64,000 bases of DNA, from contig JAOPYQ010000008.1 in assembly GCA_025964555.1 (NCBI GenBank), positions 40,953 to 104,952 of the forward strand, in the 5' to 3' direction. The DNA is from Thermoleophilia bacterium (GTDB lineage: Bacteria > Actinomycetota > Thermoleophilia > Gaiellales > SKUG01). Position numbers and translations under genes: made by a program. Under the pieces are notes generated by a model. That model did not search any database. It saw only the letters and a list, made by a program, of their open reading frames with translations, and had not been told where the DNA came from. Below are positions 7,316 through 53,074 of the stretch, piece by piece. Each line of letters begins with the position of its first letter. Position 1 is the first letter of the stretch.

Positions 7316-7789
7316 TCACCACGTGCCGGCGGAGCAGCCCTGCCCGTCGATGGTGCCGCCGGATCGATCCGTCGCACTGAGCGGCCTGGTGTCGCAGAGC
7401 TTGAGGATCTGGCCGTCGGTCAGGTGCAGCTCCGCGAACCAGATCGTGGGTGACGCCTCGCTCGCGGCCTGGATCATGTAGCCGGTGCCGTCGGAGCCGA
7501 CCGGCGCGACCTGGTATCCCCCGTCCGCCGCGGGCGCGGTGCCGAGATGCAGCGGCCCGAGCGCGGGCTCGTTGTCGAGGAGCACCGCGGGGTCGAGACA
7601 GTCGGGTCCGATGCTCGAATCCGAGCCGGTGTAGGTGCCGTCGACACGCACGGCCGCGCAGGACTCGACGGCGTACACCACCTGCTTGACGTTCGCCTTC
7701 ACCTGCGTTGCCTGCGCATTCGATTTCTGCGCCGAGAACGTCGGTACCGCGATGGCCAGGAGGAGCGAGAAGATCGCGAGGATGCCCAT
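7316..7789 (-). CDS. Type IV pilin-like protein lacking a prepilin leader
   Basis: A 157-residue protein whose N-terminus (MGILAIFSLLLAIAVPTF, then SAQKSNAQATQVKANVKQVV) matches the second half of a type IV pilin hydrophobic helix and the start of the pilin headgroup helix. The usual leader and cleavage block (G|FTLIEL) is absent: the frame has a TAG four codons upstream of the ATG and only 29 bases separate it from holA. The mature-like part has four cysteines (in VESCAAV, GPDCLDP, LKLCDTR, GQGCSAG) that could form two disulphides. It could be a membrane-anchored pseudopilin or a 5'-truncated gene. A TAGCAC -10-like box six bases upstream of the ATG argues that it is expressed. It follows comEC-holA on the same strand, which fits a DNA-uptake or pilus role. 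Confidence 0.65.
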   Translation of the reverse strand: MGILAIFSLLLAIAVPTFSAQKSNAQATQVKANVKQVVYAVESCAAVRVDGTYTGSDSSIGPDCLDPAVLLDNEPALGPLHLGTAPAADGGYQVAPVGSDGTGYMIQAASEASPTIWFAELHLTDGQILKLCDTRPLSATDRSGGTIDGQGCSAGTW

Positions 7790-12900: not shown

Positions 12901-15900
12901 TCAGCGCTTCCTCTTCGCGCCGGGCGAGGCGCCATCCTCGTCCTCGTCGTCGTCGTCCTTCTTCTTGCGACGACGCATGCGCGGATGTGGATGGTGCCTG
13001 CTGTTCGCCGCGCGGCGGGCCGCCTCGGCCGCGCCCTTGGATCCCGCGGCCCGCTGTGCCGCCTTGATCGGGTCGCCGCGCATGAGCCATGCGCCAGTGC
13101 CCGCCACGACCGTGCCGCCACCCACGATGAGCGCCGCGAGCAGCCAGTTGTCCCGGAACCAGTCGGCGAGCTTCGCCACCGGGCTCCGTCGCTTGGACGA
13201 CGCCAGCTCCTCCGTCGCCGCGACGACCTCGCCGCCGAGGCGTCGACCCGTGCGCACACCCTCGGGGTTGCTCGTGCCACCCGTCGTCACGCCCTCGATG
13301 CCGTCGGGCGTGCGCGTGCTGCCCGCATCGGTGCGCGTGGCGCCGTCGGTCGTGCGGCGCTCGTCGCCGGCGTCCTTGGTCGTCTCGGGCTGCTTGATCG
13401 TCGCCGGAGGCACGCTCGCACGCGGCTTGCGCGTCGAGCTTCCGTCGTCCTCGTCCCCTTCACCGGTGGTGTTGGGGAGCGCCTTGTCGACGTCGTTGTC
13501 GGTCACCGCCACCTTGATCGCCGGTGTCGACGCCTTCTTGTAGCTCGGATCGTCGCTTGTCACCGCGAAGGTGAGCGTGCCCTCGTGGTCGCCCTCGACC
13601 TCCTCGTCGTCGACCGCCGTGACCTTCAGCTCGATGCCGTCCTTCCACTTCGCAGGCGTGAAGACGACCGGCTTGTCGCTCACCGACACCTGCGCGTCGC
13701 CCTTCGCGACGATCGACACCTCGGCGGTCGGCTGGCTCGACAGCGTGAAGCGGATCGTGTCGCCCGCCGCCTTGCCCTCGGTCACGCGCGTGGAATTGGA
13801 GCTCTGCGACGCGATGATGTTCGCGGCGTCGTCGTCCGCGATGCTCACGGCGACACCCGCCAGGCTCGCGCCGGTCCAGCCGGCCGCCGTCGTCGTCGCC
13901 GCGTGCGCGACCTCGCCCGCGTGCGGGTCGGGCTCGTCGATGCTGTCCTGCACCGCGCTCACGGTGACGGTCTGCGGCGTGCTCCAGTTCGCTGCAGTGA
14001 AGGTGACGGTCGCCGGCGCTGCCGTGACCTGCGCGCCGCCGTTCGTGGCGATCGTCACGTCCGCGGTCGGCTCGCCCAGCAGTGCGATCGTGTACGTGTC
14101 GGTGGTGCCCGCTTCCGCGACGATCGTCTTGCCTTCGGTCTCGACGACCTTCACGCCCGCGAGGTCGTCATCGGTGATCGTGACGGCCTGGCTCGCGGGG
14201 GTGGCCGCCGTTCCCGGACCGTACGTCGCGTCGTCGCTCGCGAGCACCATCTTGAGCGTACCGGTGTGCTCGCCCTCCACGACCGTGTCCTGCCTGGCAC
14301 CGATCGTGAGCAGCTGCTGCGAGTTCCAGTTCGCGGGCGTGAACGTCAGGGTCGCCGGGGTCGCGGTGAGCTGCGTGCCGGGGTCGAGCGTCACGATCAC
14401 GTCGTCAGTGGGGCGGGTACCGAGCCGCACGTTGAGCGTGTCGGTGGTGCCCGCCTCCGCGACGGCGTTGCCCGAATCCGTGGGCACGACGACCACGCCG
14501 GGCGTGTCGTTGTCCGTGATCGACACGTCGACCGGTGCCGGCGTGTACGCCAGGTAGCCGGCATCGCCCGCCGTGACCTTGAACGTGACCGCTCCGGGAT
14601 GCGGGTCGGGCTCGTCGACCGGGTCGTCCTTCGCGGCGACGGAGATGTCCTGGGGGACGTTCCAGGACGTGGGCTGGAAGGTGATCGTCGCAGGCGTGGT
14701 GTCCACCTGCGCGCCGCCGTCGATCGCGATCGTCACCGGGGCGATGGGCTGGCTCGCGAGCGCGAGCGAGATCGTCCTGGTGGCGCCACCCTCGGTGACG
14801 GCGACCGGCCCAGCCGGCGTGACGACCGTGCCGACGGCGTCGTTGTCGGTGATGTCGATGTCGACGTCGCCGATGGTCGTCGCGTCGTAGGTCGCGTCGG
14901 TGGACGTCACGTCGAACGTGACCTTCGCGGAGTGGGCACCTTCGGCGATCGCGTCGTCGGTGGCGGTGAACGTGACGAGCCGGTTGGAGCCGGCGCCGTC
15001 AGCGCTCGTGAACGTCACGGTTGCCTGGTCGACCGTCAGCTGGCTCGTCGGGGTGGCCGCGACCGCGATCGTGACGTCCTTGCCGGGCGGCGGCGTCGAT
15101 CCGATCGTGACGTAGCAGCCGATGTCGCTGGTGGCGCTCGCCGGATCCTCGGCCATCTGCGCGCGCCCGCTCGTGTCGTCCCAGTCCGGGCCGTCCTGAC
15201 ACGACACGGTCGCGACGTCCGCGGCGGCATCGGTGATCGAGAACGTGCGCGGCGCCACCGTCAGCGGTGCGTAGCCGGGGTCGGAGGTCGGGGCGATCGT
15301 GAACGACACGACGCCGGGATGCGGGTCGGCTTCGTCGATGCCGTCGGCGACCGGCTGCACCTGCAGGTCGACTCCGGTCGCGTAGTTGGTGGCGTTGAGC
15401 ACGAGCACGGGCGGCGTGAGGAAGCTGACCTGGCCGTCGTTGCTCGCGGTGATCGTCACCGGCGAGGACGGGATCGTGGCGAGACGCACGTTGACCGTGC
15501 GCGCCGAGCCGGTGACGTCGTCCTCGGCCATCGTCATGTCGGCCGGGTCGGTGACGACCACGAGCGGCACGTCGTCGTCGTCGATCGAGACGGTGGTGTC
15601 GGCTGGCGTGAGGCCGCTGAACGCGGCGTCGGCGCTCGTGGTCACGGTGCTGAACGTCGTCGTGTGCGGATCGGCCTCGGTGAGCAGGTCGTCCTTGGCC
15701 TGCACGGTCACCGTCTGCGGCGTCATCCAGTTCACGGAGGTGAACGTGAGCGTCGCGCCGGTCAGGTCCTCGAGCTGCGCCGTGTCGACCCCGAAGTCGA
15801 CGAGCACGTCCTGCGTCGGCTCGGCGGTCAGGCGCACGGCGAACGTGTCGGTCGTGGCGCCGGCCTCGGCGACCGCGATCCCACCCAGGTCGTCGACGAC

Positions 15901-18900
15901 GATCCCGGCCGTGTCGTCGTCGGTGATGTCGACGGTCACGTCGGCGATCGGAGGCGCCACGAGATACGCGGCGTCGCTCGATGCGTTGACCGTGCTCGTG
16001 ACGAGCGCCTGCTCGCCCGGGTCGACGAGGGAGTCGTCGACGGCCGTCACGGTGATCGTCGCGGGCGTCGCTGCATTGGCGGCGTCGAAGGTGTGCGATG
16101 CGGGCGACACCGCGACGTCGGGGCTCGTCTTCGCGAAGTCGACCGTCACGTCGGAGGCCGGGATGCTGTTGATCGCGACCGCGTAGGTCTGCGAGGTCGC
16201 CCCCGCCTCGAGCACCGTGAGCGCCGCCGGTACCGGGGTCAGCGTGAAGCCGGGCTGGTCGTCGTCGCCCACCGCGAACTGCGCGTCAGTGATCGCCAGG
16301 TTCGCGGCGGTCGCGTAGTTCGGGTCCCCGGTCGAACCGGAGGCGTGCGTCACGAGCGCCGCATGCGGGTCGAGCTCGGTGATGAGGTCGTCGACGGCCT
16401 CGACGGTCACGGTCTGCGGCGCGTTCCAGGTGGTGGCGTCGAACGTCAGCACCGTGTCGCCGCCGACGATCGCCACGTCGGCGTCGGGCGTGAGCGTCAC
16501 GTCGACATCCGCGATCGGCTGCGAGGTGAGCACCACGTCGTACGTCGCGTTCGGGACGGACCCGTCCTCCTCCAGGGGCGCGGGCACGATGCCCTGCGTC
16601 ACGGTCACGCCCGCGACGTCGTCGTCGAGCACGTCGATCGTCTCGGGTGCCGGCGTGAGCGCGTCGTAGCGCGCATCCGCGCCGCCCACGTCGATCGCGA
16701 GCAGGCCGGGGTGCGGCGAGCCCTCCACCACCGCGTCCTGCTTCGCGCGCACCTGTACCGGCTGCGCGGTCGCCCAGTCGGTCGGCGTGAACGTGAGCGT
16801 GGCGGCGCCGACCAGTTCGACCTGCGCGTCGGGCACCAGCGTGACGGTGACGTTGCCGCTCGGGCGTGTCGCGAGCACGACGTCGTAGTCGACGGTGGTC
16901 GCCGGGGTCGCCTCGTTCACCTGCGTGCCGCCGGTCACGGCGAGCTGCACGACGCTCGCATCGTCGTCGGCGATATCCACGATGCGGTCCACGGACGCGA
17001 GCGCGTCGTAGGTCGGATCGGCGGGCGCGCCGTTCGATGCGATGTCGAACGTGACGTGTCCGGGGTGCGGATCCGCTTCGTCGTCCTGGTCCTGCAGGGC
17101 GGTGACGGTCACCTGCTTCGTCGTGTTCCAGTCGAGCGGCGTGAAGGTGAGGGTGCCGGTCGCGGCCACCTGCGCGTCGCCCGCCACGGTCACGGTGACG
17201 TCGCCGATCGGCTGGCTCGCGAGCTTGACGTCGACCGTCTGGCTCGTGGTGCCGGCCTCCGCCACCGCGATCGTCGCGGGCGTCACGACGAGCGCGGCTG
17301 TGTCGTCGTCGGCGATCGATGCGTCGGTGTCGGGGATCGTCACCGAACCGAAGTCGGGGTCGCCGCCGCTCATGACCGAGAACTCGATGGTGCCGGTGTG
17401 CGGATCCGCCTCGTCGACGTCGTCGTCGATCACGGTGAGCGTGACGACCTTCGGCGTGCTCCAGTCCGTGTCGTCGAAGGAGATCGTCGCCGGCGCGAAC
17501 GTGAGCTGTCCACCGGGCGCGAGCTCGTTGAGGGCGATGTCCACGCTCTGGCCCACGGCGGGCGACGCGCCGAGCTTGATGCTGAAGGTGTCGGTGGTGC
17601 CCACGGCCGCCTCGTCGAGCGTGAGTCCACCCATGAGGTCGAGGATCGCGGATGCCGCGTCGTTGTCGGACACCTGCGCGGTCGCGTCGGGGATCGCCAC
17701 GGGGTCGTACGGGTCGTCGCTCGCGGAGGCGTCGATCGTGAACGACACGCTCGCGGTGTGCGTGCCCTCGATGAAGCCGTCGTCGACCGCGGTCACGGCG
17801 ACCGTCACGCCCGTGTTCCAGTTCGTCGAGTCGAGCACGACCTGCGTCGGGCTGGCGGCGGACTCCCCGTCCGCGGTGGCGAGGTCGATCGTCACGGGCG
17901 ACGTCGGGTTCGTCGCGAGCGTGACGACGAGCTGGTCGGGCGCGCCACCTTCCGCGATCTCGAACGTGCCGCCTGCGGGCGTGACGATCACGCCGGGCAC
18001 GTCGTCGTCGAGCACGTTCGCGACGACCGGATCGATCGCGGTCGCGGTCGGGTCGTAGTTCGGGTCGCCCGTGGAGGATGCGACGTGCGTGATCGTGCCG
18101 GTGTGCGCGCCCTCGAACACCGCGTCCTGCACGGCGGTGACCGCGACGTTCTGCGCGGTGTTCCAGTCGGAGGGCGTGAACGTGAGCGTTGCGGGCGTGG
18201 CGAGCACCTGGTTGCCGGGCGTCGCCATCGTGATCGTCACGTTCGCGATCGGCCTGGACGTGAGCACGACGTCGTAGTCGTCGGTCGCGCTGCCGTCCTC
18301 GGCAACGTCCGTGGATGCGCCGCTCGGGGTGATCGTGACGCCGGCCGTGTCGTCGTCGACCACGTCGATGGACTGCGATGGACCGGTCTCGCCGTCGAAG
18401 TTCGCGTCGCCGCTCGCCATCACGTGGGAGATCGTCGCCGCGCTCGGGCTCGCCTCGTCGACCGCGTCCTGTACTGCGAGCACGTCGACGAGCACGCCGG
18501 TGTTCCAGGTCGCGCTCGAGAGCGTGACGCTCGTCGGCAGGAACGTGACCTGCGCGGGAGCGGGCGTGGCGAGGTTCACGGTGACGTCGCTGGCGGGCTG
18601 GCTCGTGAGCGTCAGGCGGTACTGGGCTGCGGGGAGCGCGCCGGCCTCGTCGACCGACAGCGTGCCCGCAGGGACCGGCGTGGCGACGAGGTCGGACGTG
18701 TCGTTGTCGGTGATGGCGGCGCTCACGCCCGTGGGCAGCACGGGCTGGTAGCCGGTGTCGGTCGTGGTGACCGAGTGCACCACCGTGCCGGTGTGCGGGC
18801 TCGCCTCGTCGACGCTGTCGTCGATCGCGCGGAGGGTGACGGCCTGCGGCACGTTCCAGTCCGTAGTGGTGAAGACGACGTTCGCGACGGTCCACTCGAG

Positions 18901-21900
18901 CTGGGTCGAGACCGGGGCGATGGTGACGTCCGCGGTCGGCTGGCTGTCGAGCACGATCGTGTAGCTCGACGTCGCGCCGCCTTCGGTGACGGCGTGGGGC
19001 GCGGTCGGGGTGATCGTCACGCCGGGCGTGTCGTTGTCGGTGATCGAGAAGTCGGCGGGATCGATGGTGAGCGCGCCGGTTCCATAGGCCGGGTCGACGC
19101 TGAGCGTGTCGTGCACCACGCTGCCGGTGTGCGGCGAGGCTTCGGCGATCGCGTCGTCGACCGGCGTGACCGTCACCGGCTGGTCGGTGTCCCAGTCGCC
19201 CGGCGTGAAGGTGAGCGTCGTCGTGGCGCTTGCGACCTGTGCGTCGGGGGTGATCGTGACGTCGACCGGCTGGGTCGGCTCGCTCTCGAGGCGCACGGCG
19301 TAGGTGCGTCCGGCGAGCGGCGTGGATTCGGCGAGCGTGTCGGGCGCTGCCGGCGTGACGATCACGCCGGCGGTGTCGTCGTCGGCGATCGCGACGGAGT
19401 GCTGGGTGGCAGCGACGCCGGCGTAGAACGGATCGCCGACGCTGCCGGTGAGCGCATCCACGGTACCGGTGTGCGGTCCTTCGAACACGTCGTCCTGGAT
19501 CGCGTCGACGGTGATGGTCTGCGGAGTGTTCCAGTCGGTGGGCGTGAAGGTGAGCGTCGGGGAGCCGCCGAGCACGAGCTGGGTGGAGCTGAGCGTCACC
19601 GTGACGTTGGCGGTCGGCTTGGTGGCGAGGCGCACTCGGACGGTGTCGCCGAGGCCGCCCTCGGCGACGCTCGTGTCGGGCAGCGTCGCGTCGATGAACA
19701 CGCCCGGGGTGTCGTTGTCGGCGATCCCCAGGTCCATGTCGGCGAGCGAGAGCGCGGCGTACGTGGGGTCGGCGCCGCCTGCCGTGTGGGTGAGCGAATC
19801 GGCGTGGGGACCCTCGGCGACATGGTCGTCGATCGCTGCGACGGTCACCGTCTGCGGGGTCATCCAGTTCACGGAGGTGAACGTGAGCGTCGCGGGCGTC
19901 GGGGTCGCCTGGCCGGCGAGCGAGGCGACGTCGATGGTCACCGCGCCGGTCGGCTCGCTCGTGAGCTGCACGGTGTAGGTGGCGGTCGTGCCGCTCTCGG
20001 AGATCGCGAGCGGGCCGGGCAGCGCGGGCGAGAACACGACGTTCGCCGTGTCGTCGTCGGTGATCGCGATCGACTGCGACGCGACAGTGACGGCCGTGTC
20101 GTAGGTCGGATCGAGCGCGCTCGACACGTCGTGGGTGATCGTGGTGGTGTGCGCGCCCTCGGCGATGGCGTCCTGCACGATGGCGACGCTCACGTTCTGC
20201 ACCGTTGCCCAGTTGCCGGGCGTGAAGGTGAGCGTGCCGGGCGTGGGGGTGCCGTCCGCGTCGCCGCCGAGCGTGACCGTGACCGCGCCGAGCGGCTGGC
20301 TCGTGAGCGAGACGGCGTAGGAGAGCGGCGTGCCACCCTCGGAGCCGGCGAGGCCGGCGTTGGGTGCGACGAGCACGCCCGAGGTGTCGTCGTCGACGAT
20401 GTCGACGTCCACGTCGTCGATGGCGAGCGTGCCGGCGCCGTAGTAGCTGTCGGTGCTCGCCGTGTCGACGGTGATCGCGACGCTCTCCGGTGAGGGCTCG
20501 TCGACGAAGTCGTTGACCGCGTTCACGGTGATCGTCCGCGGTGCGTTCCAGGTTGCCGGGGTGAAGGTCACGGGCGCCATCGCGGCGAGCTCGCCGCTGC
20601 CGTCCGTGAAGTTCACGTCGACGTTCGCGGTGGGCTTGCTCTCGAGCACGACGTCGAACGTGGCCCCTGCGGCGCCCTCGGTGACGGTCAGGCTGGTGGG
20701 AGCGACGGTGACGCCGGGCACGTCATTGTCGGTGATGTCCGCGGTGACGTCGGCGACCGCGACGTTGAAGTCGGGATCGGAGCTCGACATGGCGTGCTGG
20801 ATGACGCCGGGATGCGTGGTCGCTTCAACGACGAGGTCGTCGTTGGCGCTCACGGTCACGGTCTGCGCCGAGTTCCAGTTCAGGGGCGTGAACACGAGCG
20901 CCGGGGTGGAAACCAGCACCTCGGCGTCGGGCGTGAGGGTGATCGTCACATCGGCAGCTGGCTCGGCGTCGAGCACGACGTCGTAGGTGTCGGTGAGGCC
21001 CGGCGTGCCCTCGGCGACGGCGACCAGGGTCGGGCTGATCGTGGCGCCGGCCGCGTCGTCGTCGGTCACGTGTGCGACGACGTCGGCGATTGCCAGCGCC
21101 GGCACGTAGGTCGCGTCGCCTGCGGTGATGACGTGCGTGATCGTCTGGTCGTGCGGTCCCTCGACCACGAAGTCGGGCGTGCCGTTGACGGTGACGGTCT
21201 GGGGCGTGTTCCAGTTGGCGGGCGTGAAGGTCAGCTGCACGGGCGTGGTGGACGCGTCGGGGCCGCCGGTGATGTCGATCGTGACGTTCGCGGTGGGCGC
21301 CGACTGCAGGCGCACCTGGTAGGTGTCGCTGGTGCTGCCTTCGTCGACGTCGGTCGATGATCCGCTCTCGGTGACGATGACGCCGGTGGAGTCGTCGTCG
21401 GAGATCGTGACCGTGACGTCGGCCGGGTCGAACGCGTCGTATGCGGCATCGAGGCCGGATTCCGCGTCGATGACGATGACGCCCGAATGGGTTGCCGCCT
21501 CGTCGAGCGCGTCGTTGACGACCGTGACGGTCACGGTGCGCGCCACGTTCCAGTTGGCCGGGGTGAAGGTGATCGGATCGGGCGCGACGGTCGTCTGCCC
21601 GTCCGAGGTGTCGAACGTGACATCGACGTCGTCCAGTGGTCGCGAGGTGAGCGCCACGCTGAAGCTGGCGGTGGTGCCGACGGCCGCTTCGTCGAGCGTC
21701 AGGCCGCTCGTGGGCGTGACGGTGACGCTGCTCGTGTCGTTGTCGGCGATGTCGACCTGCTGCTGGCCGATGACGAGGCCCGCGTCGTAGTGCGTATCGA
21801 GGCTGCTCGCCGTGTGCAGCACGAAGCCCGAGTGGGTGGCTGGCTCGTCGTCCGGATCGTCGACCGCGGTGACCGTGAAGGCCTGCGGCGTGTTCCAGTT

Positions 21901-24900
21901 GGCGCTGGTGAACACGCGCGAGGCCGGGGCGAACGTGGTCTGGCCGTCGCCCACGGTCGGGGTGACGGTGACGGGCGCGGTCGGAATCGTGTCGAGCACG
22001 ACCGTGTAGGTGGCGCTCGTGGTGCCTGCCTCGGCGACGGTGATCGCTGCGGTGCCGGGCGCGACGGTCACGCCTGCGTCGTCGTTGTCGGTGATGGCGA
22101 CGGGGATGTCGGCGAGGACCCAGCCCGCGTAGACGGGGTCGCCGGTGACGTCGAGCTCGACGCGGCCGGCGTGGGTGTCGGGGTGCTCGTCGACCTGGTC
22201 GTCGATCGCGTCGACGGTCACGGTCTGGGGCAGGTTCCAGTTGGCGGAGGTGAACGTGAGCGGATCGACGTCGACTGCGACCTGCGTCGGGGTGAGGTCG
22301 ACGACGACGTTGGCGGCGGGCTGCGTCTCGAGCACGACCGAGAACGTGTCGTCGGCGCCGCCTTCGGTGGCGTTGAGGGCGGTCTCGGAGACGATGATGC
22401 CCGGGATGTCGTTGTCGGTGACGTCGAAGGCGACGGGCGCGGCGGTCGCTGCACCGTAGTAGGTGTCGCCGGTGGTGATCGCGTGCGTGATCGTGCGGGT
22501 GTGGACGGGTGCCTCGGTGACGAGGTCGTCGATCGCGCCGACGGTGACGGTCTGCGCGGTGTTCCAGTTGGCGGCGGTGAAGGTGAGCGAGCCGGGCGAC
22601 GCCGCGAGGTCGACGGGCACGGTGAGCGCGACGTCGACGTTCGCGGTCGGCTCGGAGTTGAGCCTGACGGTGTAGGTGACCGTGGTGCCGGGAGCGGGGT
22701 TGTCCTCGTCGAGCGCGTACGGGCTCGCTGCGGCGACGGTGACTCCCGCGGCGTCGTTGTCGGTGACGTCGACGGCGACGGGAGCTGCGCTCGTCACGGT
22801 CGCCCAGCGCGGATCGGAGCTCGCGACGGAGTGGGTGATTCCGCCGGGGTGGGTGCCGACGCCTTCGTCGATCGCGTCGTCGACCGCGGTCACGGCGACG
22901 GGCTGCGCGACGTTCCAGTTGGCGGTGGTGAACGTGAGGGTCGACGGCAGTGCGGTGACCTGCGGGTCGGTGGCGATGGTCACGACGACGTCGGCCTGGG
23001 GCTGGCGGTCCAGCACGACGGTGTACTGGTCGGTGCCGGTGCCTTCCGTGACGTCCACGCCGCCGGCCTCGTTGATGGTGACGCCGGGTACGTCGTTGTC
23101 GGCGACCGAGCCGGTCCTGGTGGTCGCGCTGAGCGCGAGGTAGCCGGGATCGCCCGCCGTGGCGTCGATGCCGACCGTGGTGGGATGCGGGTCGTCCTCG
23201 ACCGTGGGGTCGTCCACCGCGGTGATGGTGACGGTCTGGTCGACGTTCCAGTTGGCAGTGGTGAAGGTGAGCGTCGGGGCGCTGGCGGTTGCCTGCGCGT
23301 CGGTGGTGATGGCGACGGTGACGGGCGCGGACGGCTGCGAGCCGAGGTGCACGGTGAGCGTGTCGCTGGCCGGCAGGTCCTCGTCGAGCGCGAGGGTGCC
23401 GGCGGAGACGACGAGCGATGCGGCGTCGTCGTCGGCGACGTCGGCGACGACGGGGCTCGGGGCGAGTGCGTCGTAGCGCGGGTCGCCGGTCACGTCGAGT
23501 GCGATCGAGCCGGGGTGGATGGCGGCCTCGTCGACGGCGTCGTTGACCGCGGTGATGGTGATCACCTTCGGGGTCGACCAGTTCGTGTTCGAGAACGTCA
23601 CCGGGCCGCTCGTGGTGATCTGCGCGTCCGGGTCGGGGGTGATCGTGACGGTGCCGACGGGCTCCGATTCGAGCACGACCGTGAAGGTGTCGGTCGCGGG
23701 CAGGTTCGCCTCGTCGACGTCGACGCCGCCGAGCTCGTCCACCGTGATGGCTGCGACGTCGTCGTCGGTGATCGCGACCGACTGGTTGGCGAGCGACCAG
23801 CCGGCGTAGGTCGTGTCCGGGCTGGTGACGGTGTGCACGATGGATCCCGTGTGCGGGTCCGGCACTTCGTCGATGTCGTCCTGGACCGCGACGATGCTGG
23901 CGGTCTGGTACGTGTTCCAGTTGCTCGGCGTGAACACGAGCGTGGTGATCGGCTGCAGCTGGGGGCCGGTCGCGAAGCTGATGGTGACGTTGCTGGTGGG
24001 CTCGGATGCGAGGCGCAGCTGGTAGGACGATCCAGTGCCGCCCTCGGTGGCGGTCAGGCCGCTCGTGGGCGTGACCTCGATGCCGGGCACGTCGTCGTCG
24101 AGCACGTTCACCACGACGGGAGCGGCGGCGACGGAGTTGTACGCGGCGTCAGCGGGGTTCGGTGCGCCGACGGTGTGCGAGACGGTGCCGGTGTGCGGGC
24201 CCTCGACGATCGGATCCTGGAAAGCGGAGACCGTGACGTTCTTGGCGATGTTCCAGTCGGTGCCGTCGAACGTGAGCGTGGTGGTGGACACGTCGACGTC
24301 CGCGTCGTCGACGATGGTGACGGTCACCGCGCCGACGGGCCTGCTCGTGAGCTTGACGCCGTACTGGACGGTTGCGGGGTTGCCCTCCTCCACGGTGAGC
24401 CCGCTCGTCGGGGTGACGTTCACGCCGGCCGTGTCGTCGTCGGTGACGGCAGCCGTGGTCGCGCCGATGGTGAGCGGGGCGTAGAGCGGGTCGGTACTGG
24501 TGACGGCGTGCGTCACGACGCCGGTGTGCGCGTCGGGCACTTCGTCGTAGGCGTCGTTGACCGCGGTGATGGTGACGGTCTGGTCGATGCTCCAGTTGGA
24601 GGCGGTGAAGGTGAGGGCCGCGGGCGCGTAGCTGACCTGCCCGTCGGAATTGCCGAGGGTGACGACCACGTTCGCGGACGGCTTGGTCTGCAGTCGCACG
24701 GCGTAGGTGTCGCTGGTGGCGCCGGCCTCGAGCACGGCGACGCTCGTCTGGCTCGGCGAGACCACGAACGCGGAGACGTCGTCGTCGGTGACGTTCGCCA
24801 CGACGTTGGCGCCGCTGAGGGCGCTGTAGGCGGCGTCGCTGCTCGCCGCGACGTGGGTGATGGTGCCGGCGTGGGGATCGGGGACTTCATCGACGTCGTC

Positions 24901-27900
24901 GTTGACTGCGGCCACGGTGACGGTCTGCGGGGCGTTCCAGTTCGCCGTGGTGAACGTGAGCGTCGGCGCGCTCGTGGTGACCTGGGCGTTCGCGCCGAGC
25001 GTGAGGACGACGTTCGCCGTCGGGCGGGTCCGGAGCCGGACCGTGTAGGTGTCGGTGACGCCACCCTCGGTGACGTCGGTCGACGGCCCGGCGCCGTTCT
25101 CGACCACGATGATGCCGGCCGGTTCGATCGAGACGGTGTCGTTGGTGGTGTCGGCGACCGTCGTCTCGTTGCCGACGTTGTCGGTCGTGACGATCCGGTA
25201 CCGGTAGCAGCGGTTGAGGGCGGCGGTCCCGTCGGTCCACGGCGACGCGACGGGATCGGTGGATTCGGTGGTCCAGGCGCTCCAGGTCGTGTCGCACGTG
25301 TTGGGCCCGGTGACCCCGGTCTCCTGCCGCTCGATGCGCCACGTGGCGATGCCGGAGCCACCGGTGTCGACGCCAGTGGTGAAGGTGACGGTGGGTGTCG
25401 AGGTGGGGCCGTCGGCGTAGTCGAGCGTGACGCCGGTCGGGTCGGTGATGTCGGCGACGACGTCGAACGCCGCGGTGCTGAAGTTGGCGGCGTTGTCGGC
25501 GACCTGGACGGTGCGGCCGGGTCCGGGGTCTGCGGTCGTGCCGCCTCCGGTCCACGCGTACGTGAGCGTGTAGGGGCCCGGGTTCGGGACGATGCCGCCC
25601 GCCGGGGATCGGGTCCAGTTGGTGCCCAGCGCGGGGTACGCGACGTTCGCGACGCCGCTGAAGCCGTCGCTGGGCGTTGCGGTCGCGACGAAGTCGCCGC
25701 TGGAGCCCGCCTTCGTGTTGATGTAGATGCGCGGCGTGACGCTCGGGACGATGTGCTGCGCGCCGGGGTTGGTGCCCTTGGCGAGCGTGATGCCGACGGA
25801 CGGCAGCTCGTTGTCGACGTAGGTCGGCTGGGTCTGCGAGCTGAGCACGTTGCCTGCGCGATCGGTGACGACGAGCACGAGCGTCGTCGCTCCGTTCGGC
25901 GCTGCGGTCGTGTCCCACGCGCAGGACCAGCTGGCTGCGACCGCAGGCGTGCAGGCGGTCGCGGGACCGGAGCCGAGGCGCACGCTGATGCTCGCGACGC
26001 CGGACCAGTTGTCGCTGCTCGTGCCGGACAGTGCGACCGAGGTGCCGCGCACGTAGGTGGGGACCGGGTTGATCGTGCCGCCGGGCAGCGTGCGGTCGAC
26101 GTGCACCTCGTTGGCGCTCGTCGCGAAGGTGCGGTTGTTGACGTTGTCGAACGCTGCGAGGTGGTACTGGTAGCACGTGTTGTCGGCGGTGGTGCCGTCG
26201 CCGTGGGGTGCGAGGAGTCCGGGCGAGCCGACGGGGACGTACGCCGTCCAGGCGGTACATGCGGGGCCGGGCGCCGAGCGGCGTTCGAGGACGTGTGCGC
26301 CGGTGCGAACGCCCGAGCCGCCGGTGTCGGTGGCGGTGCTCGCGTCGAACACGACGCTCGGCGCGACGGCGTTGCTCCACCAGGCGGGCGATGCGGTGCC
26401 GCCCGGGCCGGTGATGGTGTGACCCGTGGGTCCGACCGTGTCGCGGTTGAGGTTGATCGGCAGGTCGGTAAAGGCGTTCGAGTTGCCGCGCGCGCGCACG
26501 AATTCGGCGCCGGGGCTACCGGCGGCCGTGGTGTACGTGTAGTGCATCTCGTACGGGCTGGGGCCGGTCGTGTCGTCGGCCGGCGCGCCGGCGTCGGGGA
26601 CGATGTTGGCCCCCGTCGTGGCGGTGTCGGGGAAGCGGACGTACGCCAGGCCGCCCGGAGCGTCGGTGGCGTTCGCGCGGATGGTGAAGTCGCTCGCGCC
26701 GCAGCCCACGCCCGCGGTCGAGAACCAGAAGGTCGCGCTCGGCAGGCCGCTCCAGTACTGGCAGTCGACGAGCGTGCCCTTGACGAACGAATCGAGCGTG
26801 ATGAGCGGTGGGCTGTTGTCGATGATCACATCGCGCGTGACGATCGCGGTGACCGTGCGCGTGGCCAGGTCGGTGACGTCCACGAACACGCGGTAGTTGC
26901 CGTCGGGCGTTGTGCCGAGCGTCGTGTTCCAGTTGATCGCCCAGGCCGGCTCCGCACTCGTGTCGGTACCGATCGTGCCGCTCGTCAGGTCGTCGAGGTT
27001 GAGCCAGCGCAGCGTGACGCTGGCGACTCCGGAGTTGGAGCCGTCCGTGATGCCGTCGGTCGACGTGCCCGCGAGCGCCTCGGTGCCCATGTACGGCGAG
27101 GACGGGGCCGCGTTGAACGTCGCGGTCGGGTCGTACAGGTCTGCGATGACGGCCTGGGGCGTGGCGCTCGTGGACGTCGTGTTGCCGACGTTGTCGGTGG
27201 CGACGATCCGGTAGCGGTAGCACATGCCGTGCACGAGGGTCGTGTCGGTGACGGTGGCGGGCAGGACGGCCGCGGGGGTGCCGATGACCGTCGACCATGT
27301 CAGTGGCCAGGTGGCGCCCGAGCAGGAGCCGTACGCGTTGCGTGGGATCTCGTCGCGCTCGATGCGCTGCACGTCGATGCCGGCGCCTGCGTCGGTGTAG
27401 CTGGTGATGTTGAGGACGATGCTCGACGAGGTGTGCCACGACGGCCCCGGGGTCGTCTGGGGCGTGATCGCGCCGCTGACGGGGACCGCGTTGTCGGCGG
27501 TGATCGTGAACGCCGCGTTCGCTGACGTCCTGTTGGAGTTGCTGGTGGCCGTGGCGTTGCGCGTGCCGAAGTTGGTCACGCCCGCGCTCCACGAGTACAG
27601 CTGGGTGTAGGGGCCGGGATCCTGGACGGTGGAGTTGGTGGTCGGCGTCCACGGCGTGCCGCCAGCGGGCGCACCCGGCGTGGTGATGAAGTCGATCCCG
27701 GATTCGGGGTCGTCGGGAAGGAAGTTCGCGGAGATCGACGGGATGGCGGCGCCGATGCCGGTCGTCCTCACCCACGCACGGTGGTTGGCGGCGACCGGGT
27801 CGATGAACTGGTACTCGGGGTTGGTGCCTTCGGTGAAGCCGGTGTGCACCATCGTCGGGACCGTGTTATCGATGAGGATGTCGTGCGTGATCGCGTTGAG

Positions 27901-30267
27901 GACGACGTTGCCGGCGACGTCCGTCACGTCGACGTGCAGGCGGTAGTTGCCATTGAGCGCGGTCGTCACCCACGTGTAGTTGCCCCAGGCGGGCGCGACC
28001 GAGTTGTCGGTGTAGAGCGCGACGGTCGGGCCCGGGTTGGCCAGGTCCTCGAGGCGCACGGCGACGCTCGCGACGCCGCTCCAGTTGTCGGTTGCGGTGC
28101 CGCCGAGCGTGATGTTGCCGCTGCCGGCCGCGGGCACGGTGTTGAGCGTGACGGCGGGATCGGTGTCGTCGACCTGCACCGAGTTGGTGTTGGTGAGGTA
28201 CGAGATGTTCGCGACATTGTCGGTCGCTTCGACGCGGTAGCGGTAACACTTCCCGTCGGCGATGCCGGTCGTGTCGGTCACGGCGGTGATCGGCGGCGGC
28301 GGGTTGCCGAACACGGGGGCGCCGACGTTGGTGTACACGCCGGTGAAGGCGGGGCAGGCGCCGGAGGCCGAGGTGACTTCCTCGCGCTGGAGCTGGTAGG
28401 AGGCGACGCCGGATCCGGTGCCGTCGCCCATCGCTGCAGTCATGTTGAACGCGACCGACGGCGTGCTGCGCCACGTGGTGAGGTTCGGTGGCGTGAATGC
28501 GCCGCCGGTGGGCCCGGTGACGTCGCGGGTGATGGAGTGCGTGATCGGTGCCGCGGTGTTGCCTGCGTAGTCCCACACGTCCATGCGCTCGTTGCCGAGG
28601 TTCGCGGACGTGGCGTCCCACTGGTACGTCCCGGTCCACGGTCCGGGGTCGTACACGTCGACGTTGGCGGAGGGCTGGATCCAGTTGTTGGCGGCCTGGC
28701 CGCGAAAGCGGACCTGGAACGGTCCGGAGAGGGCGTCGGTGGGGTTCGCCGTCACGTCGAACGTGCCGGACTGGTTGCCGTTGTAGAAGACGGCGGTCGG
28801 CGAGGCGACGTACTGGTACTGGGGGTTGGTGCCCTCGGCGATGTTGGTGACGGTGACGGTCGGAGGCGTGTTGTCCCATCCCTTGAAGCCCGAGGCGTAG
28901 AGGTCGAGGGTGTTGCCGACGGCATCGGTGATGCGGTAGCGGAATTCGGAGCAGACACCCGCTCCCGGCACCATGGCGAAGGTGTCGACGACGGTCGTCG
29001 CGGTCGCTCCGGGGGTGCCGATGTCGGTCCAGGATCCCGCGCTCGTGTCGCAGCCGCCGTTGAGCGCCACGCCGTCGCGGCGCTGGAGCATGCGGGTCAT
29101 GCTCGCGTAGTTGGAGGCGGATGCCCCGGCGTCGGTGAGGTTGGTGTCGGCGCGCGGGAAAACGAGCGTGTTGTTGCCGTTCCCGCCCCAGCCGGGCGTC
29201 TGGATGTCGAGGCTGCCCGTGCCGCCGGCGACCGGAGGCTGGTCGTCGGCGACGAACTCGATCGGCGTGTTCGTGCTCGTGTCCTGCGGCGCGTCGTTGT
29301 TGTTGGCCGTGGCATTCGGCACGCCGCCGAGGGCCGCCGCGGTCCAGCTGAAGGTGCGGGTGTAGGCGCCGCCGCCGACCGTGAAGGCGCTGGCAGGCAC
29401 GAGCGGGTACTGGGCCGCGCCGCCGCCGGTCATGCCGGTGGCGTAGTTCTCGCGCACCGTCGAGGTCGCTCCCGAGGCGGTGGTGTCGCACCCGGTCGGC
29501 GTCTGGTACGCGGCGGACTGGCTCGGCAGTCGCCAGCGCAGCTGGACCGTCGCGCTGTTGGTGTTGTTCTCGTAGTACTCGACGACGACGTCCTTCTTGC
29601 CCGCCGTCAGGTTGATGCCACCGGCACACTGGGTCGTGGTCTGCACGCCCGTGGTGTCGGTCCAGTAGCTGAGCACCTCGGTGCCGTTGACCTTGACCTT
29701 CACGCCATCGTTGGAGGACGCCTGGAAGTAGTAGACGCCGTTCTCGGGCAGGTTGATCTTGCCGCTCCACCGCGCACTGAAGGTGTTCGGTCCGATGGCT
29801 GCGTGTGGCGAGCCGGAGCCCCACGAGAAGTTGATGTCCGGATCGATCCGCGACACGCTGGCGCCGGTGAAGTTGTTGCCCGGGTAGTTGTTCGTCTGGG
29901 CGTTGTCCCAGTAGGTGGCGACCAGGCCGGGGGCGTCGGATGCGCTCGTGTCGCTGCTGCCGGCGGGTGACCATCCGGTCGGCGGCGTCGGCCAGTTGAG
30001 GAAGGCGACGCCGGTCTCGGGATCCTTCGCGACGATGGTGGCGCTGGCGCTGCCGGAGAAGAGCGGGTTGAACCAGAGTCGATCGCTGTCAGCGGTGCCG
30101 TCGTAGTGGGCATAGGGCGACGACTCGGTCCACGAGCCGAAGGTGACGACCGGCGCGGTCGCGTCCGCGGCTGCGGCAGGGCCGGCCGAAGCAAGCACGA
30201 CGACGAGCGCCGCCAGCATGGCAGCGATGATCGTCAGTGGTCGAGTGGCGTGCGCATGGCGCAACAT
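12901..30267 (-). CDS. Giant surface protein: PA14, Ig-like modules and about 34 Calx-beta-like repeats
   Basis: A 5,788-residue predicted cell-surface protein. Visible order: signal peptide (residues 1-34, cut near AAAA|DAT); a PA14-like domain (about 113-247, LVATYWDNAQTNNYPGNN ... FQASSNDGVKVKVNGTEVL) embedded in a beta domain; about a dozen Ig/FN3-like modules (recurring CYRYRIVATDNVGN and GTNPEYQ blocks) to about 1,714; then about 34 tandem repeats of 100-115 residues to about 5,593. A Thr/Arg-rich linker (SSTRKPRASVPPATIKQPET) follows, then one membrane helix (WLLAALIVGGGTVVAGTGAWLM, about 5,706-5,728), and a cytoplasmic tail with RRRKKKDDDDEDEDG. There is no LPXTG. The membrane helix with positive residues after it suggests C-terminal anchoring. 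Adhesion or matrix function is an inference; the PA14 domain suggests glycan binding. It lies between the LPXTG gene and comEA. Confidence 0.9.
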   Translation of the reverse strand: MLRHAHATRPLTIIAAMLAALVVVLASAGPAAAADATAPVVTFGSWTESSPYAHYDGTADSDRLWFNPLFSGSASATIVAKDPETGVAFLNWPTPPTGWSPAGSSDTSASDAPGLVATYWDNAQTNNYPGNNFTGASVSRIDPDINFSWGSGSPHAAIGPNTFSARWSGKINLPENGVYYFQASSNDGVKVKVNGTEVLSYWTDTTGVQTTTQCAGGINLTAGKKDVVVEYYENNTNSATVQLRWRLPSQSAAYQTPTGCDTTASGATSTVRENYATGMTGGGAAQYPLVPASAFTVGGGAYTRTFSWTAAALGGVPNATANNNDAPQDTSTNTPIEFVADDQPPVAGGTGSLDIQTPGWGGNGNNTLVFPRADTNLTDAGASASNYASMTRMLQRRDGVALNGGCDTSAGSWTDIGTPGATATTVVDTFAMVPGAGVCSEFRYRITDAVGNTLDLYASGFKGWDNTPPTVTVTNIAEGTNPQYQYVASPTAVFYNGNQSGTFDVTANPTDALSGPFQVRFRGQAANNWIQPSANVDVYDPGPWTGTYQWDATSANLGNERMDVWDYAGNTAAPITHSITRDVTGPTGGAFTPPNLTTWRSTPSVAFNMTAAMGDGTGSGVASYQLQREEVTSASGACPAFTGVYTNVGAPVFGNPPPPITAVTDTTGIADGKCYRYRVEATDNVANISYLTNTNSVQVDDTDPAVTLNTVPAAGSGNITLGGTATDNWSGVASVAVRLEDLANPGPTVALYTDNSVAPAWGNYTWVTTALNGNYRLHVDVTDVAGNVVLNAITHDILIDNTVPTMVHTGFTEGTNPEYQFIDPVAANHRAWVRTTGIGAAIPSISANFLPDDPESGIDFITTPGAPAGGTPWTPTTNSTVQDPGPYTQLYSWSAGVTNFGTRNATATSNSNRTSANAAFTITADNAVPVSGAITPQTTPGPSWHTSSSIVLNITSYTDAGAGIDVQRIERDEIPRNAYGSCSGATWPLTWSTVIGTPAAVLPATVTDTTLVHGMCYRYRIVATDNVGNTTSTSATPQAVIADLYDPTATFNAAPSSPYMGTEALAGTSTDGITDGSNSGVASVTLRWLNLDDLTSGTIGTDTSAEPAWAINWNTTLGTTPDGNYRVFVDVTDLATRTVTAIVTRDVIIDNSPPLITLDSFVKGTLVDCQYWSGLPSATFWFSTAGVGCGASDFTIRANATDAPGGLAYVRFPDTATTGANIVPDAGAPADDTTGPSPYEMHYTYTTAAGSPGAEFVRARGNSNAFTDLPINLNRDTVGPTGHTITGPGGTASPAWWSNAVAPSVVFDASTATDTGGSGVRTGAHVLERRSAPGPACTAWTAYVPVGSPGLLAPHGDGTTADNTCYQYHLAAFDNVNNRTFATSANEVHVDRTLPGGTINPVPTYVRGTSVALSGTSSDNWSGVASISVRLGSGPATACTPAVAASWSCAWDTTAAPNGATTLVLVVTDRAGNVLSSQTQPTYVDNELPSVGITLAKGTNPGAQHIVPSVTPRIYINTKAGSSGDFVATATPSDGFSGVANVAYPALGTNWTRSPAGGIVPNPGPYTLTYAWTGGGTTADPGPGRTVQVADNAANFSTAAFDVVADITDPTGVTLDYADGPTSTPTVTFTTGVDTGGSGIATWRIERQETGVTGPNTCDTTWSAWTTESTDPVASPWTDGTAALNRCYRYRIVTTDNVGNETTVADTTNDTVSIEPAGIIVVENGAGPSTDVTEGGVTDTYTVRLRTRPTANVVLTLGANAQVTTSAPTLTFTTANWNAPQTVTVAAVNDDVDEVPDPHAGTITHVAASSDAAYSALSGANVVANVTDDDVSAFVVSPSQTSVAVLEAGATSDTYAVRLQTKPSANVVVTLGNSDGQVSYAPAALTFTASNWSIDQTVTITAVNDAYDEVPDAHTGVVTHAVTSTDPLYAPLTIGATTAAVTDDDTAGVNVTPTSGLTVEEGNPATVQYGVKLTSRPVGAVTVTIVDDADVDVSTTTLTFDGTDWNIAKNVTVSAFQDPIVEGPHTGTVSHTVGAPNPADAAYNSVAAAPVVVNVLDDDVPGIEVTPTSGLTATEGGTGSSYQLRLASEPTSNVTISFATGPQLQPITTLVFTPSNWNTYQTASIVAVQDDIDEVPDPHTGSIVHTVTSPDTTYAGWSLANQSVAITDDDVAAITVDELGGVDVDEANLPATDTFTVVLESEPVGTVTITPDPDAQITTSGPVTFSNTNWSTPKVITITAVNDAVDEAAIHPGSIALDVTGDPRYDALAPSPVVADVADDDAASLVVSAGTLALDEDLPASDTLTVHLGSQPSAPVTVAITTDAQATASAPTLTFTTANWNVDQTVTITAVDDPTVEDDPHPTTVGIDATAGDPGYLALSATTRTGSVADNDVPGVTINEAGGVDVTEGTGTDQYTVVLDRQPQADVVVTIATDPQVTALPSTLTFTTANWNVAQPVAVTAVDDAIDEGVGTHPGGITHSVASSDPRWATVTSAAPVAVDVTDNDAAGVTVAAASPYALDEDNPAPGTTVTYTVRLNSEPTANVDVALTVPVDLAASPGSLTFTAANWNTAQTVTVGAIDDLVTEAPVHTRTITHAITTGDTYYGAATAAPVAFDVTDNDIPGIIVSETALNATEGGADDTFSVVLETQPAANVVVDLTPTQVAVDVDPLTFTSANWNLPQTVTVDAIDDQVDEHPDTHAGRVELDVTGDPVYAGWVLADIPVAITDNDDAGVTVAPGTAAITVAEAGTTSATYTVVLDTIPTAPVTVTPTVGDGQTTFAPASRVFTSANWNTPQAFTVTAVDDPDDEPATHSGFVLHTASSLDTHYDAGLVIGQQQVDIADNDTSSVTVTPTSGLTLDEAAVGTTASFSVALTSRPLDDVDVTFDTSDGQTTVAPDPITFTPANWNVARTVTVTVVNDALDEAATHSGVIVIDAESGLDAAYDAFDPADVTVTISDDDSTGVIVTESGSSTDVDEGSTSDTYQVRLQSAPTANVTIDITGGPDASTTPVQLTFTPANWNTPQTVTVNGTPDFVVEGPHDQTITHVITAGDATYVPALAIADVVAHVTDDDAAGATISPTLVAVAEGTPGLTDTYDVVLDAEPAADVTITLTPDAEVLVSTPALVFTPLNWNSAQTVTVSANDDLVVEATTHPGVIQHAMSSSDPDFNVAVADVTADITDNDVPGVTVAPTSLTVTEGAAGATFDVVLESKPTANVDVNFTDGSGELAAMAPVTFTPATWNAPRTITVNAVNDFVDEPSPESVAITVDTASTDSYYGAGTLAIDDVDVDIVDDDTSGVLVAPNAGLAGSEGGTPLSYAVSLTSQPLGAVTVTLGGDADGTPTPGTLTFTPGNWATVQNVSVAIVQDAIAEGAHTTTITHDVSSALDPTYDTAVTVASQSIAITDDDTANVVFSPALPGPLAISESGTTATYTVQLTSEPTGAVTIDVASLAGQATPTPATLTFTSVNWMTPQTVTVAAIDDHVAEGPHADSLTHTAGGADPTYAALSLADMDLGIADNDTPGVFIDATLPDTSVAEGGLGDTVRVRLATKPTANVTVTLSSTQLVLGGSPTLTFTPTDWNTPQTITVDAIQDDVFEGPHTGTVDALTGSVGDPFYAGVAATQHSVAIADDDTAGVIVTPAAPDTLAESTPLAGRTYAVRLESEPTQPVDVTITPDAQVASATTTLTFTPGDWDTDQPVTVTPVDDAIAEASPHTGSVVHDTLSVDPAYGTGALTIDPADFSITDNDTPGVTITPTAPHAVTEGGATSSYTIVLDSQPTADVTIAPVSTQLEWTVANVVFTTTDWNVPQAVTLRAIDDSVDEASPHTGTVVHSVTTTDTGYQPVLPTGVSAAITDNDTSDLVATPVPAGTLSVDEAGALPAAQYRLTLTSQPASDVTVNLATPAPAQVTFLPTSVTLSSATWNTGVLVDVLAVQDAVDEASPSAATISHVMASGDANFDGETGPSQSIDVVDDDTAGVTITPSGASTDVAEDGSATDDYDVVLTSRPIANVTITMATPGNQVLATPATLTFTPSDWNTAQNVAVTAVQDAVFEGAHTGTITHVASSTGDPNYDPTATAIDPVVANVLDDDVPGVIVTPAGGTFEIAEGGAPDQLVVTLATNPTSPVTIDLATADGESAASPTQVVLDSTNWNTGVTVAVTAVDDGFIEGTHTASVSFTIDASASDDPYDPVAIPDATAQVSDNDAASAILDLMGGLTLDEAAVGTTDTFSIKLGASPAVGQSVDIALNELAPGGQLTFAPATISFDDTDWSTPKVVTLTVIDDDVDEADPHTGTIEFSVMSGGDPDFGSVTIPDTDASIADDDTAALVVTPATIAVAEAGTTSQTVDVKLASQPIGDVTVTVAGDAQVAATGTLTFTPLDWNTTKQVTVTALQDQDDEADPHPGHVTFDIASNGAPADPTYDALASVDRIVDIADDDASVVQLAVTGGTQVNEATPATTVDYDVVLATRPSGNVTVTLVPDAQVELVGAATLTFTPTDWATAQPVQVRAKQDAVVEGSPHPGLLAIDVGGADARYDALTPAPETIDVLDDDVAGVTVTQGIVPAPLEEDGSVPNATYDVVLTSQPIADVDVTLTPDADVAIVGGDTVLTFDATTWNAPQTVTVEAVDDLITELDPHAALVTHASGSTGDPNYATAANLAITDAQFAVGDDDQPGFTLTPVPAALTVLEAGATSQTYAVAINSIPASDVTVDFAKTSPDVAVSPASHTFDAANAATPATITVTAVDDSLVDPGEQALVTSTVNASSDAAYLVAPPIADVTVDITDDDTAGIVVDDLGGIAVAEAGATTDTFAVRLTAEPTQDVLVDFGVDTAQLEDLTGATLTFTSVNWMTPQTVTVQAKDDLLTEADPHTTTFSTVTTSADAAFSGLTPADTTVSIDDDDVPLVVVTDPADMTMAEDDVTGSARTVNVRLATIPSSPVTITASNDGQVSFLTPPVLVLNATNYATGVDLQVQPVADGIDEADPHPGVVSFTIAPTSDPGYAPLTVAPRTFSITDAAADVATVSCQDGPDWDDTSGRAQMAEDPASATSDIGCYVTIGSTPPPGKDVTIAVAATPTSQLTVDQATVTFTSADGAGSNRLVTFTATDDAIAEGAHSAKVTFDVTSTDATYDATTIGDVDIDITDNDAVGTVVTPAGPVAVTEGGATRTISLALASQPIAPVTIAIDGGAQVDTTPATITFQPTSWNVPQDISVAAKDDPVDEPDPHPGAVTFKVTAGDAGYLAYTPAPVDVSITDNDTPGVVVVPTDSGNAVAEAGTTDTLNVRLGTRPTDDVIVTLDPGTQLTATPATLTFTPANWNSQQLLTIGARQDTVVEGEHTGTLKMVLASDDATYGPGTAATPASQAVTITDDDLAGVKVVETEGKTIVAEAGTTDTYTIALLGEPTADVTIATNGGAQVTAAPATVTFTAANWSTPQTVTVSAVQDSIDEPDPHAGEVAHAATTTAAGWTGASLAGVAVSIADDDAANIIASQSSNSTRVTEGKAAGDTIRFTLSSQPTAEVSIVAKGDAQVSVSDKPVVFTPAKWKDGIELKVTAVDDEEVEGDHEGTLTFAVTSDDPSYKKASTPAIKVAVTDNDVDKALPNTTGEGDEDDGSSTRKPRASVPPATIKQPETTKDAGDERRTTDGATRTDAGSTRTPDGIEGVTTGGTSNPEGVRTGRRLGGEVVAATEELASSKRRSPVAKLADWFRDNWLLAALIVGGGTVVAGTGAWLMRGDPIKAAQRAAGSKGAAEAARRAANSRHHPHPRMRRRKKKDDDDEDEDGASPGAKRKR
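13485..25125 (-). repeat. Array of about 34 tandem Calx-beta-like protein repeats
   Basis: Counting the conserved core LTFTPxNWNTPQTVTVxAVDD gives about 34 units of roughly 340 bases within the giant gene. Each unit starts near DDDxxGVxVxP, has an EGGxxxxYxVxLxSxPTAxVT block, the core, and ends DExxPHTGTIxHxVxSxDxxY. The acidic DDD and DE(x)PH positions are candidate calcium ligands by analogy with Calx-beta folds. Units are diverged at the DNA level apart from short nearly identical patches, so this is not a simple satellite. Confidence 0.85.
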
Positions 30268-30449: not shown

Positions 30450-30893
30450 TCAGGCCATTTCGGTGCGTGCACCGGCCCAGGCGAGCGACACGACGCCCCC
30501 GGCGAGCAGCACCGAACCGACCAGGAACAGCAGCATGAGCTGACCCGAACCGACACCGGTAAAGGGAAGTTGTCCGCTCCCGGAAGCGACCGCATATGCA
30601 GGCGCGGATGCAGGGCCGGGCTCGTTGGCGGCGGCGTTCGCGGACGCGGCGTCGCGATCGGGTTCGGCGGCGGCTCCGTCGGCGATGCCCTCGGCCTGCG
30701 GCACGGCGTCCTGCACGACGACGTCATCGCCTGCGGGCGCGACAGGATCGGCGACGTCGACCTCGGGTTCCATCGCCTCGATCGGATCGACCATCATCTC
30801 CGGCTCCCCCGCGCCCTGCGCCATCGCGGTCGCGGGCAGCGCGAGCAGCAGTGCGACGAGTGCGAACAGGATGGACGTGCGTGCGGGGCGCAT
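30450..30893 (-). CDS. Small LPXTG-anchored surface protein
   Basis: A 147-residue precursor with a Sec signal peptide (SILFALVALLLALPATAMAQ), a low-complexity acidic Ala/Pro/Glu/Asp stalk (MMVDPIEAMEPEVDVADPVA ...), and a textbook sortase signal at the end: LPFTG (109-113), a hydrophobic helix (LMLLFLVGSVLLAGGVVSLAW) and a short tail with one Arg. A housekeeping-type sortase would join it to the cell wall; no sortase gene is in this window. The start was chosen at ATG 30893 because GGAAGG lies eight bases upstream and the signal peptide begins there. It is immediately upstream of the giant gene in the same orientation, so the two may be co-regulated. The stalk has no recognisable binding domain. 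Confidence 0.85.
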   Translation of the reverse strand: MRPARTSILFALVALLLALPATAMAQGAGEPEMMVDPIEAMEPEVDVADPVAPAGDDVVVQDAVPQAEGIADGAAAEPDRDAASANAAANEPGPASAPAYAVASGSGQLPFTGVGSGQLMLLFLVGSVLLAGGVVSLAWAGARTEMA

Positions 30894-53019: not shown

Positions 53020-53074
53020 AGCCGGGACATCCTGCACTGCGCCACACATGGCGCCGCACCCTTCCGGAGGCACC

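What the first reader, a model, noticed from the sequence alone, without database searches (positions are those of the whole stretch)
12901..30267. A 17.4-kb gene for a 5,788-residue PA14 / Ig / repeat surface protein
One uninterrupted frame encodes a signal peptide, a PA14-like domain inserted in a beta domain, about a dozen Ig/FN3-like modules, about 34 tandem beta-sandwich repeats, and a C-terminal membrane helix with a charged tail. It takes up over a quarter of the window. The size and order suggest a long surface fibre, perhaps an adhesin or predation/contact protein; PA14 domains elsewhere bind glycans. I know of no characterised protein with this exact order, though I could not search.
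Basis: partly seen in the sequence, partly recalled or inferred. Interest (0 to 1): 0.75.

Follow-up and report, generated by a model that had tools for sequence, protein, structure and literature searches.

The report
Giant calcium-stiffened bacterial surface fibre
This bacterial gene encodes a 5,788-residue protein with 34 tandem repeats related to the calcium-sensing Calx-beta domains of the animal sodium-calcium exchanger; it is predicted to form a long, calcium-stiffened fibre on the cell surface that likely holds a sticky (probably sugar-binding) tip about 0.2 micrometres away from the cell.

Summary
One frame (minus strand, 12901..30267) encodes 5,788 residues: a signal-peptide-like start, a PA14 domain inserted in an Ig-like module, 13 Ig-like modules of three kinds, 34 repeats of about 113 residues, one membrane helix and a charged tail. 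Seven related proteins were found (24 to 55 repeats); in two of them all 34 repeats correspond one to one with ours, and one (P0023) has the host Ig module whole, without PA14. The repeats, unnamed by Pfam, are divergent Calx-beta domains: a two-repeat profile finds NCX1 CBD12 (E 3.4e-6), which is also the top Foldseek match of a two-repeat model (pLDDT 97). The three columns invariant in 209 of 209 repeats are NCX1 calcium ligands. I propose a membrane-anchored, calcium-stiffened fibre presenting an N-terminal tip; adhesion is inferred, and the PA14 loop reads ND where the sugar-binding relative has DD. New here: a small LPFTG protein gene just upstream in 4 of 4 genomes of the genus, and a five-repeat duplication period in three relatives. 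A new variant of a known kind (calcium-dependent fibrillar adhesins), in what I infer is Thermoleophilia.

The parts
12901..30267 (-). giant gene, 5,788 aa
   Evidence: relatives
30166..30267 (-). signal peptide region, residues 1-34
   Evidence: hydropathy; predicted
29938..30165 (-). first half of Ig-like module B1, residues 35-110
29506..29937 (-). PA14 domain, residues 111-254, inserted in B1
   Evidence: Pfam PF07691 E 9.2e-21; RsgI3 PA14 E 7.3e-33; absent from the intact B1 of P0023
29236..29505 (-). second half of module B1, residues 255-344
25120..29235 (-). 12 further Ig-like modules C1 B2 C2 A1 B3 C3 A2 B4 C4 A3 B5 C5, residues 345-1716
   Evidence: module kinds by alignment against shuffles
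13492..25119 (-). 34 Calx-beta-like repeats, residues 1717-5592
13147..13491 (-). polar linker, residues 5593-5707
   Evidence: alignment
13084..13146 (-). transmembrane segment, residues 5708-5728
   Evidence: hydropathy; predicted
12904..13083 (-). charged tail with DPIKAAQRA motif, residues 5729-5788
   Evidence: [DN]P[IV]K.AQ in 6 of 6 proteins aligned
30450..30893 (-). 147-aa protein with a signal-peptide-like start, LPFTG, a hydrophobic segment and a short tail (sortase-substrate type), directly upstream and on the same strand
   Evidence: LPFTG protein at the same place in L067, L068, L069
31087..32880 (+). adenine deaminase gene, divergent; marks the conserved locus
   Evidence: Pfam; synteny

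Best explanation
The gene encodes a 5,788-residue protein whose 34 tandem repeats are homologous to the paired calcium-binding domains of the sodium-calcium exchanger, and the protein is predicted to be a membrane-anchored surface fibre that calcium would stiffen and that likely presents an adhesive PA14 tip. Shown: domain order, repeat homology and fold match, conservation of the calcium-ligand positions, co-linearity with relatives, the conserved locus. Inferred: export by Sec with the N-terminus outside and the tail in the cytoplasm; calcium bound at each repeat end next to the linker (as NCX1 Ca3/Ca4), locking neighbouring domains so the chain becomes a rod; PA14 binding a polysaccharide; use in attachment. 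By the 190 A per four repeats of MpAFP (PMC4083281, passages), 34 repeats would span about 160 nm, and with the Ig modules about 0.2 micrometres.
Confidence: 0.68

Rival explanations
1. A non-adhesive structural spacer or coat: the fibre keeps other cells, phages or particles at a distance or builds a surface layer, and PA14 is an optional decoration.
For: PA14 absent in P0023 while repeats and tail stay; PA14 not the most conserved module; its loop is ND rather than DD.
Against: PA14 present in the other six of seven relatives; PA14 is a common adhesive domain of fibrillar adhesin-like proteins (PMC8286594, passages); L067 keeps B1[PA14]-C1 while lacking the other Ig modules.
Confidence: 0.18
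2. A contact or tension sensor: calcium-dependent stiffness of the fibre is passed through the membrane helix to the conserved cytoplasmic tail.
For: Tail motif kept in 6 of 6 proteins aligned, including P0008, 42% identical over residues 1-1716.
Against: No known signalling domain found; the tail is short and strongly charged, which also fits a stop-transfer anchor.
Confidence: 0.08
3. Contact-dependent killing or predation protein.
For: Long surface stalks also occur in such systems (recalled).
Against: The protein ends in a membrane helix and charged tail, not an effector; none of the 20 neighbouring frames scanned with Pfam looks like an immunity gene (not every gene of the window was scanned).
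Confidence: 0.02
4. Chance open frame in GC-rich DNA or an assembly artefact.
For: Opposite-strand frames of 2,551 and 2,012 aa are open here.
Against: Two relatives with 34 of 34 repeats in register; third-position GC 0.94 against 0.54 at position two.
Confidence: 0.01

Closest known systems
NCX1/CALX CBD1-CBD2 (Calx-beta domains, PF03160)
   Same: domain fold, five core calcium ligands, DDD end followed by a linker like HAGIFT
   Different: two regulatory domains inside an exchanger; here 34 copies predicted to be outside the cell, D421 position mostly Gln, different angle between domains, below the Pfam cut-off
BapP of Pseudoalteromonas tunicata (PMC12153261, passages)
   Same: signal peptide, tandem Calx-beta repeats, described as a calcium-dependent adhesin
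   Different: 7 Calx-beta repeats, beta-propeller N-terminus, outer-membrane setting; here 34, PA14, membrane helix
RTX adhesins MpAFP, SiiE, LapA (PMC4083281 and PMC7493085 passages; PMC5466336 listing and abstract start; PMC7616799 passages)
   Same: long beta-sandwich stalk; calcium at linkers makes a rod
   Different: type 1 secretion and Gram-negative hosts (partly recalled); other repeat families (LapA is said to have a Calx-beta domain)
PA14-bearing fibrillar adhesin-like proteins (PMC8286594, passages)
   Same: N-terminal adhesive domain, stalk, C-terminal anchor; PA14 in 355 FA-like proteins
   Different: its main text does not mention Calx; no known anchor for most of them; here a membrane helix with a conserved tail
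RsgI3 PA14 dyad (6qe7; PMC4711584 passages)
   Same: closest solved PA14 by sequence, E 7e-33
   Different: sensor of an anti-sigma factor, two PA14 in tandem, DDG in domain 1 instead of NDG

Membership tests
Calx-beta superfamily | sequence homology to solved Calx-beta domains | tested here: met
   A2 profile vs 3us9 E 3.4e-6; single-repeat profile only E 0.03
Calx-beta superfamily | Calx-beta beta-sandwich fold | tested here: met
Calx-beta superfamily | calcium-ligand residues | tested here: met
   five core ligands in 32 of 34 repeats; D421 position not kept
Pfam PF03160 by its curated cut-off | score at or above cut-off | tested here: not met
   no match; 3 of 34 repeats with any match at E up to 1, best 8e-4; one search found none but its controls were silent. 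So: divergent relative, not a Pfam member
Calx-beta superfamily | calcium binding | not testable with these tools
   needs protein
PA14 (PF07691) | score above cut-off | tested here: met
   74.6 vs 24 bits
PA14 (PF07691) | acidic DD pair in the ligand loop (recalled as the sugar/calcium motif) | tested here: inconclusive
   ND here; DD in RsgI3 domain 1, P0007, L067, but not in RsgI3 domain 2
Fibrillar adhesin | adhesive domain distal to a stalk and an anchor | tested here: met
   PA14 at 111-254, stalk to 5592, predicted helix at 5708-5728
Fibrillar adhesin | LPxTG sortase anchor (one common anchor, not required) | tested here: not met
   no LP.TG in the last 250 residues; LPNTT in 2 of 6 proteins, not conserved
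Fibrillar adhesin | demonstrated adhesion | not testable with these tools
   none
RTX adhesin | RTX nonapeptides at the C-terminus | tested here: not met
   no HemolysinCabind match; C-terminus is a hydrophobic segment and charged tail

The most novel reading that the evidence does not exclude
A two-gene cell-surface system not described before: a small wall-bound LPFTG protein and a membrane-anchored Calx-beta fibre whose every domain junction is a copy of the exchanger's calcium switch, so that the whole 34-joint rod goes from floppy to rigid with outside calcium; the array is built from five-domain blocks, perhaps one helical turn, and the PA14 tip is a swappable insert.
Probability: 0.22. 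Interest if true: 0.72.

Novelty: new variant of a known kind. Interest (0 to 1): 0.52.

Why it matters
The calcium-stiffened giant adhesins that I met in the papers are from Gram-negative bacteria. This would be an actinobacterial counterpart built from a different, NCX-related domain, with a single membrane anchor. The relatives are a natural series (24 to 55 repeats; with and without PA14; with and without the later Ig modules) that makes stalk length, calcium stiffening and tip function separately testable. Calcium addition to soil was reported to enrich Thermoleophilia among other groups (PMC10587086, passage); calcium-dependent surface fibres would be one possible reason (speculation).

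Tried and rejected
Pfam and NCBIfam scans of the repeat region gave no convincing family. The PF03160 search of the genome rang nowhere, controls included, so it says little. AF2 of residues 34-470 with a six-row alignment gave pLDDT 59; no fold search was made with it. 'Array length changes only in fives': 24/34/39/44 fit, but P0023 lacks the first two repeats and has two extra ones, net 34, so I keep only the weaker claim of a five-repeat duplication period: P0006 z 5.9, P0007 z 3.4, weakly P0008 z 2.2 (one of seven periods tested); not in the whole arrays of P0001-P0003 (z 0.3 to 1.1; the first 17 repeats of P0002 alone z 2.7). P0017, examined afterwards: lag 5 z 5.8, but lag 1 also z 3.7 and multiples of five z 1.3; P0023 lag 5 z 1.2; P0022, a protein without this architecture, shows lags 1-3 instead. 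Tandem block duplication explains the period without any structural meaning. The rotation between domains could not be measured, as coordinates are not given. A tail shared with paralogues was not found: the tail query hit its own gene and one E 0.002 match in four genomes, though the relatives' copies break at contig ends. Sortase anchoring of the giant itself was rejected. One search stopped with an error and its ligand labels were off by one; the counts come, except D421, whose column is wrong there and is taken. Ligand numbers were assigned by counting along the NCX1 alignments.

Full report
THE GENE. The 17.4-kb frame lies on the minus strand at 12901..30267: 5,788 residues, third-position GC 0.94. 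The window belongs to a 2.7-Mb draft genome, 64% complete. A genome of the same genus, G249, has a 30,431-base contig, the same length as JAOPYW010000004.1, 'Thermoleophilia bacterium isolate RYN_238', so I infer class Thermoleophilia.

CALCIUM SITES. PMC3386913 (passages) lists the NCX1 ligands; PMC9820601 (passages) says calcium at Ca3-Ca4 ties the two domains together and that G503 of the linker matters. The equivalents of E385, D447 and D498 are the only columns invariant in all 209 repeats of six proteins (columns filled in at least 150 rows); D500 206, E451 203. All five are present in 200 of 209, and 32 of 34 here. The D446 position is D 142, Q 36, N 20; D499 is D 128, N 79. The D421 column, which in NCX1 serves the outer sites, is Q 164, D 29, E 11, N 2. 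I infer that Ca3/Ca4-type sites are kept and Ca1/Ca2 altered. Glycine stands at linker position 3 in 135 of 203 junctions.

RELATIVES. A search with residues 1-1716 returned 16 proteins including itself, of 973 candidates scored; five have the same PA14, repeats and tail: P0002 (74%), P0003 (67%), P0007 (56%), P0006 (48%), P0008 (42%), with 34, 34, 39, 44 and 24 repeats. The other ten share Ig modules, with at most four repeats by a loose pattern. A repeat search gave 414 proteins at E up to 1e-3 among 956 scored, 120 listed, with names from several phyla where given, some 'Calx-beta domain-containing protein'; the repeat itself is widespread. P0017 (55 repeats, PA14) and P0023 (34, no PA14) were added from it. 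In P0002 and P0003 every repeat's best match is the one at the same position (34 of 34; mean 78% and 71% against 39% off the diagonal): the array has not been reshuffled since they split. P0007, P0006 and P0008 differ by blocks of 5, 10 and 10 repeats; Tried and rejected gives the five-repeat period and its counterexample.

DISTRIBUTION. In 299 genomes of the class 23 match residues 1-1716 at E up to 1e-3: the 4 of this genus strongly, the other 19 weakly (best E 1.8e-23), through Ig modules or, in G073 and G260, the PA14 part. All 5 genomes of the family held match at 1e-20, G299 only through its last Ig modules. Repeats at E up to 1e-6 occur in 10 of 349 genomes of the class, 5 of them this family, and in 14 of 296 of the phylum, itself included; both searches score only part of the candidates.

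LOCUS. The adenine deaminase gene stands head to head beside the giant gene in L067, L068 and L069, that is in the 4 genomes of the genus held; the three relatives' copies run off contig ends. Between the two lies, on the giant's strand, a gene for a 147-residue protein with a signal-peptide-like start, LPFTG, a hydrophobic stretch and a short tail; a like LPFTG protein stands there in all 4. The draft genome has one sortase match. The giant itself lacks LPxTG. A working link between the two proteins is inference.

MECHANISM. Sec export, stop-transfer at the C-terminal helix, calcium binding at each domain end, stiffening into a rod, tip out. MpAFP is the worked example: its repeats stiffen with calcium, four span 190 A, and neighbours are rotated by about 90 degrees (PMC4083281, passages). 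PA14 of RsgI3 is reported to bind pectin (PMC4711584, passages), which suggests a polysaccharide target, but the loop here reads ND, not DD. Attachment is thus likely, not shown.

VERDICT. Real, large, conserved, well explained at the level of parts; a new variant of calcium-dependent fibrillar adhesins.

Noticed in passing
window 30450..30893 (-); L067, L068, L069: Small LPFTG (sortase-type) protein directly upstream of the giant gene in the 4 genomes of the genus held; partner role unknown.
   Followed up: partly
P0006, P0007, P0017 (database proteins): Repeat arrays show a five-repeat self-similarity period, in P0017 without register to the others; P0023 and the whole arrays of P0001-P0003 do not.
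   Followed up: partly
L060-L063 (G239:C422, G249:C22): Open frames of 10,130 and 10,124 residues built of the same Ig modules; the G239 frame ends in a different C-terminus, the G249 frame runs off its contig.
   Followed up: partly
G389:C45, G107:C55, G259:C77, G269:C89, G214:C20: Open frames of 13,159 and 11,695, 12,213, 12,217, 9,412 and 8,766 residues in other genomes of the phylum with one or two such repeats.
   Followed up: no
window 10876..11892 (-): 338-residue protein with a hydrophobic start, DUF11 and RTX calcium-binding nonapeptides, lying between comEA-like and comEC genes.
   Followed up: no
window 7316..7789 (-): Pilin-like protein starting MGILAIFSLLLAIAVP a few codons after a stop, without the usual prepilin leader (leader motif recalled; no Pfam match).
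   Followed up: no
P0007, P0017, L067 N-termini: An extra N-terminal domain of about 200 residues ending LPY[VI]IDPD precedes B1 in these relatives and is missing in the window's protein.
   Followed up: no
window 54283..54373: 24-base tandem repeats near the end of a manganese catalase gene (53048..54418 +).
   Followed up: no
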